A program made the translations under genes and the position numbers. Under the pieces are notes generated by a model. It saw nothing but the letters and a program-made list of their open reading frames with translations. It was not told the origin of the DNA and did not search any database. This document shows positions 45,567 to 51,447 of a DNA stretch of 64,000 bases, piece after piece. Origin of the DNA: Lachnospiraceae bacterium (GTDB lineage Bacteria; Bacillota; Clostridia; Lachnospirales; Lachnospiraceae); the NCBI GenBank assembly GCA_017553505.1, contig JAFZLD010000003.1, positions 124,001 to 188,000 of the forward strand. The letters run 5' to 3'. Position 1 is the first letter of the stretch. The number at the start of each line of letters is the position of its first letter.

Positions 45567-46667
45567 ATGCTGATTAAGGAAGTGTTGCCGAAGGTTCAGA
45601 CCCACGGCAGAGTGTTTTATGATGAAGAAAGAAAGGCTTTCTTTTGCAACTGGAGTTGCTCGGGCTTTTCTGTATTGATAAAGGGTAAGAGCCTGAAGGT
45701 GAAGGTGCAGTCCTGGTCGGATCAGATTCAGGGAATGCCCGGCATGCCTACGCCTCCGCCGGACTGGCCGTGTATCGGAACCCTGGTCGAGGATGAACTC
45801 GTATATCGCCATGAGTGCAAGGAACTTCCAGAGGAAGGCGAGTGGTTGACTCTGTGGGAAAGTGACAAGGAAGTCGAAAAGGTAATCCGTGTGATTAAAA
45901 TATCCGAGAATTCACGAGGTAAGTTGGGAATTCTTGAGGTTGAAGTCGATGGAGAAATCCTCGAATACAAGCCCGAGAAGCGCCCCACAATCGAGATTGT
46001 GGGCGACTCAATCACCTGCGGATTCGGTAATGAAGCGCCCGACAATGCTTTTGAATTTAAGACTGTCGAGGAGAACGGCTGGGAAGCATACGGTGCCAGA
46101 GCCGCAAGAGAACTTGGATACGAGTTCTCGGTTATCAGTGAGTCCGGCATCAGCGCGGCCAAGCCCGAGCATCCGATGTTCCCCATGCATGCGATGGAGG
46201 ATATCTACGGACTTCGCGACGAGCTCTGCGACAAAAAGTTTAATAAAGAACCTGTACAATGGAATTTCAAGGAACACAAAAATGACATTGTAGTCATCAA
46301 CCTCGGTACCAACGATGCCAACCCCATCAGATTCTACAGAGAATTCGGCGAGATTGAGGGTATGGAGCTGTGGTTTAAGGCGCGCTACAAGGAATTCATC
46401 AAGCAGGTGCGCGCTTGCAATGGCCCCGACACATATATTTGCTGCACTCTCGGCCCCATGGATCAGTACCTGTACTACATCATCAGGGAAGCGGTTTCCG
46501 AGCTTGTGGCTGAGACCGGCGATGTTCGCCTCATCACCTTCCAGTACGTTTCCATTAACGTCATGACAGAAGGCTACGGCGCCGCAGGTCACCCTTCACT
46601 TAAGACTCACACCCGCATGGGTAAAGAACTTGCAGCCTACATCAGAAAGTACATAGGAGAACTGTAA
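45567..46667 (+). CDS. CE2-like SGNH acetylesterase
   Basis: 366 residues. An N-terminal beta-sandwich (about 1-130, WSCSGFSVLIKGKSLKVKV) is followed by an SGNH domain with block I IVGDSITCGFG, GTNDA in block III, and GAAGHPSLKTH carrying the catalytic histidine. This two-domain order is that of carbohydrate esterase family 2. No signal peptide. GGAGG lies before the ATG, and the stop overlaps the next gene by one base. Likely deacetylates hemicellulose oligosaccharides inside the cell. Confidence 0.88.
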   Translation: MLIKEVLPKVQTHGRVFYDEERKAFFCNWSCSGFSVLIKGKSLKVKVQSWSDQIQGMPGMPTPPPDWPCIGTLVEDELVYRHECKELPEEGEWLTLWESDKEVEKVIRVIKISENSRGKLGILEVEVDGEILEYKPEKRPTIEIVGDSITCGFGNEAPDNAFEFKTVEENGWEAYGARAARELGYEFSVISESGISAAKPEHPMFPMHAMEDIYGLRDELCDKKFNKEPVQWNFKEHKNDIVVINLGTNDANPIRFYREFGEIEGMELWFKARYKEFIKQVRACNGPDTYICCTLGPMDQYLYYIIREAVSELVAETGDVRLITFQYVSINVMTEGYGAAGHPSLKTHTRMGKELAAYIRKYIGEL

Positions 46668-47587
46668 TGTTAAAAGAAAAAGCAAACGCTATTTATGAAA
46701 ACATCGCAAGCTGGCAGGCGCCCGCAGTAACGGATGACATGCCTAAAGGCGACATGCCCGGCGACAAGATAGCCATCGGCGAAGACCACATCAGAAAGGC
46801 TTCGAAGATATTCCCTAAGCTGATTAAGCTTATCACCGACGTCGATTCGGAAAAGGTTGTAGTGTCTGTATTCGGTGGCTCCGGTGTGGGAAAGAGCGAG
46901 ACTGCATCGCTTCTTGCTCACTACCTCAAGGCAGCAGGCGTAGGAGTATATGTACTCTCGGGCGATAACTATCCGAGACGAATTCCTCTTTACAATGACG
47001 CGGAGAGATTGTCGGTATTTCGCAGCGCCGGCTTAAAAGGAGTCGTAAGTTCAGGCTGTTATAACGATTATGTCAAAGAAGAACTTTCGAAGCTCTGGGC
47101 GGCTGAGACCGACGCAGATCCCAAGGAAGCGGCTTCCCGTGAATGGCTGTTCAGCTATCAGGCGGCAGGCAGACGCGCACTTCGTGGCTACCTCGGAACT
47201 CCAGCCGAGCAGGATTATGACGAAATAAACGCTATTATCGAAGCTTTCAAGCGTGGCGATAAAGATATTTTCTTAAAGCGCATGGGTCGTACCGAAGACG
47301 AGCGCTGGTACGATAAGGTTTCTTTTGCCGACACTAATGTCTTAATTATAGAGTGGACTCACGGCGGTAACGAGAACCTCCGCGGTGTGGATGTGCCGGT
47401 TCTTCTGAACTCAACGCCGGAAGAGACGAGAGAGCACAGGAGACTGAGAGCCAGAGACGGTAAGACCGATTCTGCTTTTACCACCATGGTGCTTGAGATT
47501 GAGCAGGAAGAGCTTGACCGAGTAGGCAAGCAGGCCAAGATTATTATGGCCAAGAGTGGCGATTTTATCGACCCCGCGACGTTTTAG
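46667..47587 (+). CDS. P-loop kinase of unknown substrate
   Basis: 306 residues. A P-loop VFGGSGVGKSETASLLAHYL is followed by VYVLSGDNYPRR (an Asp in a nucleoside/sugar-kinase-like position) and by a lid-like RRLRARDGKTDS region. About 45 N-terminal residues lack similarity I can name. Automatic labels such as adenylylsulfate or uridine kinase would be weak, because no sulfate-assimilation or nucleotide genes are near. It is coupled to the CE2 gene (1-nt overlap) and lies 9 nt before a sucrose-phosphorylase-type gene. A sugar or sugar-acid substrate is therefore likely. Function unassigned. Confidence 0.8.
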   Translation: MLKEKANAIYENIASWQAPAVTDDMPKGDMPGDKIAIGEDHIRKASKIFPKLIKLITDVDSEKVVVSVFGGSGVGKSETASLLAHYLKAAGVGVYVLSGDNYPRRIPLYNDAERLSVFRSAGLKGVVSSGCYNDYVKEELSKLWAAETDADPKEAASREWLFSYQAAGRRALRGYLGTPAEQDYDEINAIIEAFKRGDKDIFLKRMGRTEDERWYDKVSFADTNVLIIEWTHGGNENLRGVDVPVLLNSTPEETREHRRLRARDGKTDSAFTTMVLEIEQEELDRVGKQAKIIMAKSGDFIDPATF

Positions 47588-47596
47588 GAGGATAGC

Positions 47597-49255
47597 ATGC
47601 AGAGCAAAAAAATGAGTATCGGAGTGATGCTTAACGCTTACCCCGACAGTATCGGCGGCAGATTATCTGATATCGTGGACCTTCTTGATGATGAGAAGTT
47701 TAAAGATGTGTTCCGCTCGATTTATCTGCTTCCGAGCGTATTCAATACAGATCTTGACAGAGGGTTCTCACTTATCAATTACGAGATAAGCGAGACGCTT
47801 GCTTCAAAGCGCGACATTGAGAGGCTTCATGAGATAAACATCGACCTTACGATGGATTTTATACTTAACCATATATCCGTTCTTTCGCCGCAATTCCAGG
47901 ATATTATTAAGAACGGTGAGAAGTCTGAGTACAAGGACTTCTTCATCAACTGGAACAGATTCTGGGAAGGCTGCGGTAAGATGACCGACAAGGGTTACAT
48001 TCAGCCGGACGAGAAGTACATTAAGAACATGTTCTTCCGCAAGGAGGGGCTACCGATTCTGATGGTGCGCTTCCCCGACGGAACCGATGTGCCTTACTGG
48101 AATACGTTTTATCAGAAAGTGATTTATAACGCTGTCGACCCGCTTAAACTGGTGCGCGAGTGCGGACTTCAGTATGAGACGGCTGTGAGAGTGAGCGAGA
48201 TTATCAATGCGGCCGTGGAAGAGGGTAAGGCTCCCGAGGATATTGATTTTGCAGGCTTTGAAGAGTATGCGGATAAGCTTCGTGATTACCTTCAGGCGAA
48301 CCGCAGCTACTTAGGTCAGATGGATTTAAACATCAAGTCTCCGCTGGTGTGGGACTATTACAAGGACACACTTAAGAAACTCTCGGATTACGGGGTATCG
48401 ATTGTCAGACTTGATGCTTTTGCATATGCGCCCAAGGAACCGGGGCTTAGGAATTTCTTGAATGACCCGGGTACATGGGACCTGCTTCAGAAGATAGACG
48501 ATATTGCTTCCGGGCACGCGCTGACGCTCCTTCCCGAGATTCATGCAAGCTACGGCGAGGGCACTTACAAGGTGCTTTCCGACAAGGGCTACATGGTATA
48601 CGATTTCTTCCTTCCCGGACTTTTGATTGATGCTTTCATCAGAAAGAACGGTAGCTACCTAAAGAAGTGGGGCGACGAGGTCATCGATAATAACATCATG
48701 ACCGTTAACATGCTCGGTTGTCACGACGGTATACCGCTTCTCGATCTTAAGGGACTTCTTCCCGAGGAAGATATTCAGAACCTTATAGACACGGTAGTTA
48801 AGCGTGGCGGTTACGTGAAAGATCTTCATGGCGCCAAGAACGTTTATTATCAGGTCAATGCGACCTACTTCAGTGCTCTCGGCGAGAGTGAGCAGCGCAT
48901 GCTCATGGCAAGAGCCATTCAGCTCTTCATACCCGGCAAGCCTCAGATCTGGTACTTAGACCTTTTCACAGGCAAGAACGACTACGAAGCCATGAAGCGC
49001 GCAGGCGCCGGCGGTCACAAGGAAATCAACCGCACGAACCTTTCTTTGACTGAGGCTCGAGAATTACTCGATAAGCCTGTGGTTCAGAAACAGCTCGAGA
49101 TGCTCCGTTACAGAAATACCTGTCCTGCATTTACTGAGGACGCGAAGGTGACGATTGAGTGTAACGGTTCTGAGATGAGCATTATATGGGTTAATGATAA
49201 GGCTAAGGCTTGTTTGAAAGTGGACTTTGAGAAAGAAACTTACGAGATAAAGTAG
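47597..49255 (+). CDS. GH13 subfamily 18-type sugar phosphorylase
   Basis: 552 residues, of the sucrose phosphorylase group. Conserved pieces: DFILNHISVLSPQF, the nucleophile strand VSIVRLDAFAYAPKEPG, the acid/base strand LLPEIHASYGEG and MLGCHDGIPLLDLKG. These enzymes phosphorolyse sucrose or glucosylated acceptors (sucrose-6-phosphate, glucosylglycerate, glucosylglycerol) to glucose 1-phosphate. It is longer than classical sucrose phosphorylase (about 490-505), so the acceptor may differ. The adjacent P-loop kinase could phosphorylate the acceptor released. AGGAGG lies 5-6 nt upstream of the ATG. Confidence 0.85.
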   Translation: MQSKKMSIGVMLNAYPDSIGGRLSDIVDLLDDEKFKDVFRSIYLLPSVFNTDLDRGFSLINYEISETLASKRDIERLHEINIDLTMDFILNHISVLSPQFQDIIKNGEKSEYKDFFINWNRFWEGCGKMTDKGYIQPDEKYIKNMFFRKEGLPILMVRFPDGTDVPYWNTFYQKVIYNAVDPLKLVRECGLQYETAVRVSEIINAAVEEGKAPEDIDFAGFEEYADKLRDYLQANRSYLGQMDLNIKSPLVWDYYKDTLKKLSDYGVSIVRLDAFAYAPKEPGLRNFLNDPGTWDLLQKIDDIASGHALTLLPEIHASYGEGTYKVLSDKGYMVYDFFLPGLLIDAFIRKNGSYLKKWGDEVIDNNIMTVNMLGCHDGIPLLDLKGLLPEEDIQNLIDTVVKRGGYVKDLHGAKNVYYQVNATYFSALGESEQRMLMARAIQLFIPGKPQIWYLDLFTGKNDYEAMKRAGAGGHKEINRTNLSLTEARELLDKPVVQKQLEMLRYRNTCPAFTEDAKVTIECNGSEMSIIWVNDKAKACLKVDFEKETYEIK

Positions 49256-49333: not shown

Positions 49334-49686
49334 CCTACAAAATTAGAAATTGGGCCGATTTGTAGGTGCCACGAAGCGGGAGTGGATGGCATTTTACCTA
49401 CAAAAAGTTAGTAACACTGACGTTTGTAGGCTGTTTTTTATCACGAACCGAGGCAGATGCCTACAAAAATTATTATCAACATGAATTTGTAGGTACACGA
49501 GCCACGCTTTGGGCGTAGGAATACCTACAAAACTAAGAAATAAAGAAGAATTGTAGGAATCAGATGCGAGCGACAGTAAGAAATGTACCTACAAAAATGT
49601 ATAATGCGAAGAAAAGTAGGAATTTCAGAGCTTTTCATTTGTTTTTCGACCTTCAAAGATGCATATTGCTTAGAAATGTAGGTCGA
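49334..49686. repeat. Periodic inverted-repeat array C (six 33-34-bp units, 63-64-bp period)
   Basis: Six units of CCTACAAA ... TTTGTAGG arms with 16-18 nt between: 49334-49366, 49397-49430, 49460-49493, 49524-49557, 49588-49620 and 49650-49682. Starts are 63, 63, 64, 64 and 62 bp apart; spacers are 29-30 nt. Arms are exact in units 1-3, shortened in 4 and 5 (TTGTAGG, GTAGG). In unit 6 the arms are decayed internally but lengthened outward (TCGACCTTCA with TGTAGGTCGA, to 49686). Inner and spacer sequences differ between units. No gene is seen in 49256-49851. A further TTGTAGG lies at 49833-49839, and GGCAA-ATTG-TTGCC at 49272-49285. Confidence 0.9.
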
Positions 49687-49795: not shown

Positions 49796-49830
49796 AAAAG
49801 AGTGAGACGATATTGCTGTCTCACTCTTTT
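49796..49830. terminator. Bidirectional terminator
   Basis: AAAAGAGTGAGAC (49796-49808) and GTCTCACTCTTTT (49818-49830) form a perfect 13-bp stem with A and T ends. It can stop both the phosphorylase operon and the convergent carboxylesterase gene. Confidence 0.9.
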
Positions 49831-49851: not shown

Positions 49852-51447
49852 TTATTTGTTTTTAGGTGTGAATCTAGGTGCTCCGAACAGGGTGATTACG
49901 AAATCGTTACTCTGAAGCTTGTCGTAGTAGTAATTGTATTTCGCCTGCTCGGAAGCGGGAATCATCGCGGTGTTGTTATTCAGGTTGATGATGTCGAACT
50001 TGTCCGCATATTTCTTCCAGGCGGGTCTTCCGTCGCCATTGGGATCGCCGGTGGCTGCAAAAGAATACCAGTAGCCCTGAATGAGTTCCATGAAGTCGTA
50101 GTCGGCGCCTACCCAGTGGTAGGGGAAGAAAGGATTTCTTTCGCCGGAATCTACACGGCCGAATACGTAAGGCATTTCGGCACAGTGAGGGGAACCTTCG
50201 TTGCGTCCGCGCTCGGTTTCGTTTTCTTTGCTCATGAGCCAGATGTAAGCGTTTCTGCCGCGTCCTGCGCAGAGCTCACCGATCTTGGCGCTGCCAAGGA
50301 GCATGATGTCGGAAGCGATGGTGGATACCTGCTTGGCGGCTTCGATACCATTGGTTGCGGGGTACCATTTCTTCATGTTATCGGCGTTGTCGGGGAAGGC
50401 TTCCTCGAGGTATTTGTGAAACTCTTCAACAGAGTACTTGGAAGCGTCAACTGCGGGGAATTCTTGTGCACAGGAGCCCATAAGTACGTCGAAGTCGTTG
50501 AATTCGCCGGCATCCATAATCTCTGAGTAAGGCTTGGGAATGAATTCGCCGTCTACGCAGAAGGTGAAGCCGAAGCCCATGGGATCGATACCCTTTGAAC
50601 GCTGGAACTCTTCGTACTTGTCGAAAAGTTCCCAGGTGTCGCGGGTACGAAGCTCTGCGATGCTCTTGCATCCGATGTATTCCATGTATTCAACACCGAG
50701 CTTTTCCATGTTCTCGCGGGGACCGGGCTGCATGAAGCCCCAGTAAATGGGACCGCTTTCGATGGATACGCGGTTGATAATACCTTTCATTAAAGGTGAA
50801 GCGTGTAAAGCGCCTGTTCCCGCAGCACCGCCGGACTGGCCCGCAACGGTGATTCTGTCGGGGTCGCCACCGAATGCGGCGATGTTTTCTTTGACCCACT
50901 GACAGGCTTTTCTCATATCATATAATGCGTAGTTACCGCTGGTTCCGCCTGCCTCGGCTGTTAAGTCGGGATGGGCAAAGAAACCGTAGAAGCCGAGTCT
51001 GTAGTTAATGGTAACAACCACAATATCTTTTCTCTTCGCAAACCCGATACCGTCACATACCACTTCGCAACCACTTCCGGCTACCATTCCGCCGCCGTGA
51101 ATCCATACAAATACGGGAAGCTTGGCATCGGGCTCAGCTGCGGGTGTCCATACATTAAGGTAAAGACAATCTTCCTCGTACTGAGAAGGTGCCATAAATT
51201 GAGGTACTCCGTGAACGTTGGCAGGCATGTCGGCCATTTCCATAACGTGCTGAACGGCAGCTGCGCTGTACTGAGTAGCTTTTCTTACTCCACGCCAGCA
51301 CTCGGGATCTTCGGGCTTTTTAAAACGACGCGCGCCTACGGGAGGAGCGGCGTAAGGGATACCCTTGAAAATCTTAACGTTTTCTTCGGCATAGCCCTGA
51401 AGCCAGCCCTGTTTAACCTTGACCTTGGCGTTTTCAAAATCTGTCAT
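49852..51447 (-). CDS. Type B carboxylesterase
   Basis: 531-residue alpha/beta hydrolase of the carboxylesterase/para-nitrobenzyl-esterase family. FKGIPYAAPPVGARRF, EDCLYLNVWTP, the oxyanion loop HGGGMVAGSG, the nucleophile S205 in VAGQSGGAAGT and the histidine region GSPHCAEMPYVFG are all present. No signal peptide. Relatives in fibre degraders include feruloyl and acetyl esterases, but the substrate cannot be read from sequence. AGGAGAG precedes the ATG. Divergent from the binding-protein gene at 51657. Confidence 0.9.
   Translation of the reverse strand: MTDFENAKVKVKQGWLQGYAEENVKIFKGIPYAAPPVGARRFKKPEDPECWRGVRKATQYSAAAVQHVMEMADMPANVHGVPQFMAPSQYEEDCLYLNVWTPAAEPDAKLPVFVWIHGGGMVAGSGCEVVCDGIGFAKRKDIVVVTINYRLGFYGFFAHPDLTAEAGGTSGNYALYDMRKACQWVKENIAAFGGDPDRITVAGQSGGAAGTGALHASPLMKGIINRVSIESGPIYWGFMQPGPRENMEKLGVEYMEYIGCKSIAELRTRDTWELFDKYEEFQRSKGIDPMGFGFTFCVDGEFIPKPYSEIMDAGEFNDFDVLMGSCAQEFPAVDASKYSVEEFHKYLEEAFPDNADNMKKWYPATNGIEAAKQVSTIASDIMLLGSAKIGELCAGRGRNAYIWLMSKENETERGRNEGSPHCAEMPYVFGRVDSGERNPFFPYHWVGADYDFMELIQGYWYSFAATGDPNGDGRPAWKKYADKFDIINLNNNTAMIPASEQAKYNYYYDKLQSNDFVITLFGAPRFTPKNK

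What the first reader, a model, noticed from the sequence alone, without database searches (positions are those of the whole stretch)
49334..49686. Six-unit CCTACAAA/TTTGTAGG array with a 63-64-bp period
Starts at 49334, 49397, 49460, 49524, 49588 and 49650 keep a 62-64-bp rhythm; each unit is 33-34 bp with 29-30-nt spacers. Only the arms are conserved; the AT-rich inner parts and GC-richer spacers differ. A 63-bp period is close to six DNA turns, so all units would face one side of the helix. Unit 6 has lost inner arm bases but gained outer pairing (TCGACCT with AGGTCGA). It sits after a phosphorylase operon and before a bidirectional terminator, so it is probably in the 3' region of that mRNA.
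Basis: seen in the sequence. Interest (0 to 1): 0.82.

Follow-up and report, generated by a model that had tools for sequence, protein, structure and literature searches.

The report
DNA docking array for distant nuclease
The six evenly spaced palindromes look like docking sites, placed on one face of the DNA helix, for an undescribed nuclease-like protein whose gene lies elsewhere in the same genome; many such genes carry their own differently spelled array, and the spelling changes together with the front half of the protein.

Summary
The array is real: six 33-34-bp inverted-repeat units at 49334-49682, 62-64 bp apart, with unrelated interiors. The same genome has two more arrays with these arms; one adjoins a gene for a ~300-aa protein with a PD-(D/E)XK-nuclease-like C-terminal domain and no Pfam or NCBIfam family. 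The genome holds nine homologues; relatives and rumen Treponema hold more. Many sit beside their own array with different arms: strict test, 37 of 72 upstream, 3 of 72 downstream, 0 of 72 shuffled. In 40 non-redundant array clusters, all 83 distinct unit-to-unit distances lie within 2 bp of whole helical turns (10.55 bp). Between sibling genomes the arms change with the N-terminal half of the protein, while flanks and nuclease domain stay more conserved; in one alignable array nearly every half-site changed in concert. The N-terminal half therefore very probably reads the arms, and the window array is a gene-less array for the nuclease on contig C23. What binding achieves (autorepression, tethering, mobility) is inferred. 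Against: 32 of 72 members have no strict array on either side; a few arrays lie downstream; gene-less arrays are found for two arm types and not for a third. No description was found in the papers searched.

The parts
49334..49366 (.). array unit 1 (inverted half-sites CCTACAAA / TTTGTAGG)
49397..49430 (.). array unit 2
49460..49493 (.). array unit 3
49524..49557 (.). array unit 4 (right arm AATTGTAGG)
49588..49620 (.). array unit 5 (right arm AAAGTAGG)
49650..49682 (.). array unit 6 (CCTTCAAA / ATGTAGG, weaker arms)
49796..49830 (.). 13-bp inverted repeat with flanking A and T runs, likely terminator shared by the two convergent genes; similar repeats stand there in G013 and G002
   Evidence: not found by the scan
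47597..49255 (+). flanking gene, GH13 alpha-amylase family (context only)
49852..51447 (-). flanking gene, carboxylesterase family (context only; its orthologues located the sibling loci)

Best explanation
The window array is a gene-less (trans) array of double-stranded DNA binding sites for a nuclease-like protein encoded elsewhere in the same genome (G000:C23:119965-120867, protein P0001), which has its own five-unit array of similar arms at its start. Each 33-34-bp unit is a pair of inverted ~9-10-bp half-sites, probably held by a protein dimer. Units are whole helical turns apart, so successive dimers sit on one face of the DNA and can touch. The N-terminal half of the protein reads the half-site; the C-terminal part is a PD-(D/E)XK-type nuclease domain. 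At the gene, the occupied array most likely restrains the protein's own expression; gene-less arrays such as this one most likely are extra docking sites that hold the protein on the chromosome. SHOWN by computation: the arrays, their phasing, adjacency to one gene family, paralogue-specific arms, change of arms together with the N-terminal half. INFERRED: binding itself, dimers, autorepression, tethering, catalytic activity.
For: Same arms and period at the C23 gene. Arrays near family members: at least 3 strict units upstream in 37 of 72, downstream in 3 of 72, in 0 of 72 over five shuffles each. Whole-turn spacing: 40 non-redundant clusters, 83 votes, best period 10.55 bp, resultant 0.91, 83 of 83 within 2 bp of a multiple, 0 of 2000 random sets as good. 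Arm similarity follows protein similarity, 0 of 1000 permutations. Orthologous loci: arms and N-half change together. All 10 Treponema genomes with CCTAC-type arrays are among the 41 of 146 that match the family, P 1.3e-6. S193, K194, E196, D227, H243 invariant in 34 of 34; the C-terminal part matches PADLOC models of PD-(D/E)XK type.
Against: 32 of 72 members show no strict array on either side within 700 bp (some have short or missing flank, some show looser arrays). The C23 gene itself scores only one exact unit in that test; its five units come from the looser scan. In 3 members the array is downstream, which does not fit plain promoter control. When the C-part is held constant the link between arms and N-part is weak (partial 0.13, 24 of 1000 permutations as high) and the reverse partial is larger (0.27), so the whole-family test does not single out the N-half; that rests on the sibling loci. 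G013 and G140 have arrays without an intact matching nuclease found. No biochemical evidence; fold not tested.
Confidence: 0.72

Rival explanations
1. Mobile-element reading: nuclease gene plus array is a selfish unit (like a REPtron or a free-standing homing endonuclease), and gene-less arrays are non-autonomous copies or scars left after gene loss.
For: Two copies in the window genome (L180, L181) share one block that spans promoter, gene and array and little else. Gene-less arrays are present or absent between siblings with 92-93% identical flanks and replaced at the window locus. The family is shared between the window's family and Treponema.
Against: Interiors and spacers of the three CCTACAAA arrays in the genome are unrelated, so they are not recent copies of one another. 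In alignable orthologues the arms co-evolve in place with the protein, which scars would not do. No target-site duplication or clean empty-site junction was defined.
Confidence: 0.25
2. Operator reading: the protein is mainly a transcription factor and the window array regulates neighbouring genes.
For: Arrays adjoin the family's own genes; several gene-less arrays lie between divergent genes.
Against: The window array lies between two convergent genes; flanking genes scanned share no common function; putative catalytic residues are invariant in 34 of 34.
Confidence: 0.15
3. RNA reading: the units act as RNA hairpins or guide-like RNAs.
For: The transcribed strand would fold better than shuffles (z -4.1); at L175 and its two orthologues a promoter-like sequence lies upstream of the array (read by eye). 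Some arm changes occur on both arms (16 positions against 3.6 expected if arms were independent), though arrays with their own arm consensus, such as CCTACAG, would give the same.
Against: Of 88 deviating positions in 146 distinct CCTAC-type units, 71 are changed on one arm only. Whole-turn phasing has no reason in RNA. No Rfam match to the array (the only hit, E 0.94, is elsewhere).
Confidence: 0.06

Closest known systems
I-TevI-type homing endonucleases that repress themselves (PMC2988022, passages read)
   Same: A nuclease with separate DNA-binding and catalytic domains that binds an operator upstream of its own gene without cutting it and so represses itself.
   Different: I-TevI is a GIY-YIG enzyme with one operator that overlaps its promoter; here there are arrays of phased inverted sites, sometimes downstream, plus gene-less arrays elsewhere, and a PD-(D/E)XK-like domain.
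REPtrons: RAYT transposase genes with GTAG-tagged REP palindromes (PMC3733652, abstract and section 16 read)
   Same: An enzyme gene flanked by its palindromes, more palindromes elsewhere in the genome, several enzyme-specific repeat families per genome.
   Different: RAYTs are HUH/tyrosine enzymes and REPs are conserved palindromes in many copies; here only short arms are shared, interiors are unrelated, spacing is whole turns, and the arms need not contain GTAG.
TIGR-Tas stem-loop arrays (PMC12045711, abstract and section 9 read)
   Same: An array with palindromes and variable parts beside one effector gene, some effectors nucleases.
   Different: Tas proteins carry a Nop domain and use processed RNA; here no Nop domain was found for P0001, units are phased to the DNA helix, and the arms follow the protein.
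Specificity exchange in restriction systems (recalled, no paper read)
   Same: A specificity module is exchanged while the catalytic part is kept.
   Different: Here the exchanged cassette also carries the sites themselves. No methyltransferase was seen among the neighbours scanned, which is not a full search.

Membership tests
PD-(D/E)XK nuclease superfamily (C-terminal part of the P0001 family) | Sequence homology to proteins annotated as PD-(D/E)XK | tested here: met
   19 of 34 members match HEAT_CxxC_PDDEXK (best 1.8e-6); 34 of 34 match PDC-S68, best 3.1e-32. Pfam: no real match.
PD-(D/E)XK nuclease superfamily (C-terminal part of the P0001 family) | Conserved acidic active-site residues | tested here: met
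   E196, D227 and H243 invariant in 34 of 34, E242 and K259 in at least 90%; assigning them to the active site is my reading.
PD-(D/E)XK nuclease superfamily (C-terminal part of the P0001 family) | Core fold | not testable with these tools
CRISPR array | Conserved whole repeats | tested here: not met
   Only the arms are shared; the unit interior varies.
CRISPR array | cas genes nearby | tested here: not met
   No Cas family in the five neighbouring window proteins scanned with Pfam; the rest of the genome was not searched for cas genes.
REP / REPtron | Conserved palindrome with GTAG or CGTC tag and a RAYT (HUH) transposase | tested here: not met
   Other arms of the same system lack GTAG (e.g. 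CACACCTT, TGGCGAAGTAA, ATGCATAA); no Pfam transposase match in the family.
TIGR-Tas | Nop-domain Tas protein with the array | tested here: not met
   No Nop match for P0001 and six other members at E up to 10; none among the 25 of 31 families shown for 34 members.
Self-repressing homing endonuclease | Operator at the gene's own promoter | tested here: inconclusive
   Array upstream in 37 of 72, downstream in 3 of 72; promoter positions only read by eye.
Self-repressing homing endonuclease | Cleavage of an empty allele and homing | not tested
   Needs biochemistry and crosses.

The most novel reading that the evidence does not exclude
A DNA leash: the arrays hold a harmful nuclease inactive in a phased protein-DNA filament, and loss of chromosome integrity (for example when a phage degrades host DNA) frees it to destroy the invader or the cell. 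Specificity is switched by exchanging a cassette of array plus reader half, so that paralogues do not share leashes; gene-less arrays like the one in the window add holding capacity.
Probability: 0.2. Interest if true: 0.95.

Novelty: categorically new. Interest (0 to 1): 0.88.

Why it matters
If right, an undescribed family of bacterial nuclease-like proteins reads DNA through an exchangeable N-terminal half whose target is written beside the gene, repeated about three to ten times and phased to the helix. That gives some two dozen natural reader/site pairs (my count) from one protein family, so the recognition code could be learned from sequence alone. It also poses a direct question: how a cell lives with nine such genes whose sites lie in its own chromosome.

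Tried and rejected
mRNA 3' element of the operon: set aside because siblings have other arms at the spot and arrays occur in all gene orientations. One-off duplication: rejected. Rfam family, phage or plasmid sequence: no match of weight (best E 0.1 in phages, 5 in plasmids). Defence-island reading: of ten neighbours scanned around seven of the nine own copies, nine have Pfam families, mostly metabolic or housekeeping (GH39, GH3, GH43, HSP33, valyl-tRNA synthetase, ABC transporter); yet the nuclease domain matches phage-defence candidates. AP2-like fold for the N-half: a guess from the sequence pattern, not tested, not used.

Limits of the counts: the first array searches fixed the gap between units, which favours 64-bp spacing, and one search counted some arrays twice and kept orthologues; I therefore repeated the phasing test on non-redundant clusters. 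The unit scan allowed only 32-35 bp, so the near-constant unit length is partly by construction; two viral hits with shorter units drop out of it. The two-unit pattern also hits by chance: its reversed control matches in 8 of 40 genomes. Four of the 26 stretches (L050, L054, L056, L057) showed no array and I read them as chance. Of the 41 matching Treponema genomes, at least six match only with the C-terminal part, in frames of 418-1242 aa.

Full report
OBSERVATION. The array is as described: six inverted-repeat units of 33-34 bp at 49334-49682, start-to-start 63, 63, 64, 64, 62. Three match the strict pattern; shuffles of the window give none. Only about 8 bp at each end are shared; interiors and spacers differ.

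MORE ARRAYS WITH THE SAME ARMS. It has two further arrays with the same arms and a 62-63-bp period but unrelated interiors: six units at C11:59386-59732 and five units on C23 (L034 4822-5104). The one-unit pattern matches 4 of 60 genomes, own included. The two-unit pattern matches 3 of 40; outside G000 these are two hits in G002 and one in G048, at the level of the reversed control, which hits 8 of 40 genomes. A scan of genome contigs gave 26 stretches, 20 of them in records named Treponema, Spirochaetaceae or Spirochaetales, one in a Clostridiales record. In a Treponema genus sample 10 of 146 genomes match a wider two-unit pattern, reversed control 0 in the genomes listed.

PHASING. Intervals in these arrays are 53-54, 62-65, 72-75, 83-85, 95, 103-105 and 126, for example 64-105-64, 74-84-74 and 74-54-64-74. 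After merging arrays that share similar units (82 records to 40 clusters, a merge that errs towards too few), one vote per cluster and distinct interval gives 83 votes: best period 10.55 bp, resultant 0.91, all 83 within 2 bp of a multiple of 10.55, and 0 of 2000 random sets as good. Gene-adjacent arrays alone, found with no upper or lower limit on spacing other than 40 bp, give the same period (79 votes, 37 arrays with orthologues, 0.915, 0 of 1000). Whole-turn spacing is a property of double-stranded DNA and points to proteins on one face.

THE GENE. Nine arrays adjoin genes of one protein family, some of them orthologues of each other; one is the C23 array of the window genome (P0001, 301 aa as called; the last array unit overlaps the called start, so the true start is probably further in). 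No Pfam, NCBIfam or PDB match of weight was found. The C-terminal part matches PADLOC candidates: PDC-S68 in 34 of 34 members, PDC-S69 in 25, HEAT_CxxC_PDDEXK in 19, and the C-termini of long helicase-like proteins on viral contigs (profile comparison 99.9%, E 1.8e-37). S193, K194, E196, D227 and H243 are among the invariant residues. G000 has nine matches; 18 of 60 genomes searched have the family, nine of 17 other same-genus genomes among them; 41 of 146 Treponema genomes match. In a phylum sample 14 of 299 match: four with full-length members, all in the window's own family, ten only with the C-terminal part. All 10 array-bearing Treponema genomes are among the 41 (P 1.3e-6); in G140 the only match carries six stops.

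EACH PARALOGUE ITS OWN ARMS. A de novo search for inverted hexamer pairs within 700 bp of 72 distinct members found at least three units upstream in 37, downstream in 3, and in none of 72 over five shuffles each. Some others have looser arrays, the C23 gene included. By my count of the consensus list there are about two dozen different half-sites, such as CACACCTT, TGGCGAAGTAA, ATGCATAA, ATGACCCT, TTGACTAAA and ACGGATAAA. Arm similarity follows protein similarity (rho 0.33, 0 of 1000 permutations; 653 of 666 pairs, those under 80% identical in the C-part). With the C-part held constant the link to the N-part is weak (0.13) and the reverse partial is larger (0.27), so this test alone does not say which half reads the arms.

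ARMS AND N-HALF CHANGE TOGETHER. Siblings G013 and G002 give orthologous loci. (a) C5:98418, 25 kb left of the window: flanks 94% and 90% identical to G013, but the block from the array through the N-half does not align; N-part 47%, C-part 98%; arms read CCCATCCATAT in G000 (by eye) and CACACCTT in G013 and G002. (b) C22:69745: TGACCC in G000 and G002, TTGACTAAG in G013 (N-part 61%, C-part 81%); G013 keeps one TGACCC-like unit at the outer edge. (c) C23:38784: GGCGAAG in G000; in G002 the array block and N-half differ (44%, C-part 74%) and no clean array was found. (d) C8:62791: the array still aligns, but eight TGCAT-type half-sites in G000 and in G002 stand against none in G013, which has six of GGATAA/TTATCC type, one TTATCTAT and two GGCATAA; N-part 74%, C-part 99%. 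Same-arm pairs: C19:63180 with G013 (N 95%, C 98%), C8 with G002 (N 83%, C 88%), C22 with G002 (N 74%, C 83%). Changed-arm pairs thus have N-parts of 44-74% and same-arm pairs 74-95%, touching at 74%. This is the main ground for giving the reading role to the N-terminal half.

THE WINDOW LOCUS IN SIBLINGS. Between the same two genes G013 has three TGACCC-type units, 85 and 63 bp apart (again whole turns), and G002 one, none of CCTACAAA type. None of the six G013 copies found shows a TGACCC array, in line with its switched C22 orthologue. The C11 array is absent from G013, whose flanks are 92-93% identical there. TGACCC has gene-less arrays in G000 (C26) and G002 (C9, C34, C87); 2 of 20 genomes matched, and G013 was not in that sample. 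CACACCT has none: in 18 genomes only the arrays at the genes of G002 and G013 match.

MECHANISM. Best reading: the N-terminal half binds half-sites, one dimer per unit, units on one face; at its own gene this restrains expression, elsewhere it docks the protein. In L175 and its two orthologues a promoter-like sequence and a short hairpin lie upstream of the array and are conserved (by eye). In three members the array is downstream, so docking may matter more than promoter control. A known nuclease that binds without cutting and represses itself is I-TevI (PMC2988022, passages). Why the sites survive is open: a second sequence requirement, or branched DNA as substrate.

NOVELTY. Nine library searches listed no paper that I recognised as describing such arrays or this family; the library holds openly licensed PubMed Central papers only. 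I call it categorically new because the combination of phased self-sites, gene-less arrays and a joint site-plus-reader exchange fits none of the classes tested; a function found later may place it closer to a known kind.

Noticed in passing
L180 2964-4068 and L181 2889-4000 (window genome, C8 and C7): Two related copies have the array (arms TTATCGCAA) downstream of the gene; the block they share, 76% identical, spans promoter, gene and array and ends with the last unit.
   Followed up: partly
L112 / L053 against L052: A two-unit array looks like a deletion derivative of a five-unit orthologous array, joined at an arm, so units can be lost without breaking the phase (by eye).
   Followed up: no
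L095, L101, L105 (Treponema, next to hisF): At the same hisF site the flanking hisF is 96% identical between L095 and L101, but the nuclease-like proteins are 51% identical and the arms are CCTACAG against CCTACAAA.
   Followed up: partly
L194-L202 (viral contigs): The same nuclease-like domain stands at the C-terminus of long (about 750-1350 codon open frames) helicase-like proteins on viral contigs.
   Followed up: no
L036 12166-12264 and L037 1074-1172 (viral contigs): Two viral contigs carry a two-unit CCTACAAA/TTTGTAGG match with shorter units.
   Followed up: no
L044 1639-1764: A Clostridiales record has two units each followed by a GACTAYCTGTAGGG segment.
   Followed up: no
window 46667-47587: Protein weakly matching Zeta_toxin (PF06414, E 2.4e-4, below the Pfam cut-off), between a GDSL-lipase-family and a GH13 gene.
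   Followed up: no
L178 upstream array: A run of two neighbouring units and spacers appears twice, about 128 bp apart, suggesting growth by duplication (by eye).
   Followed up: no
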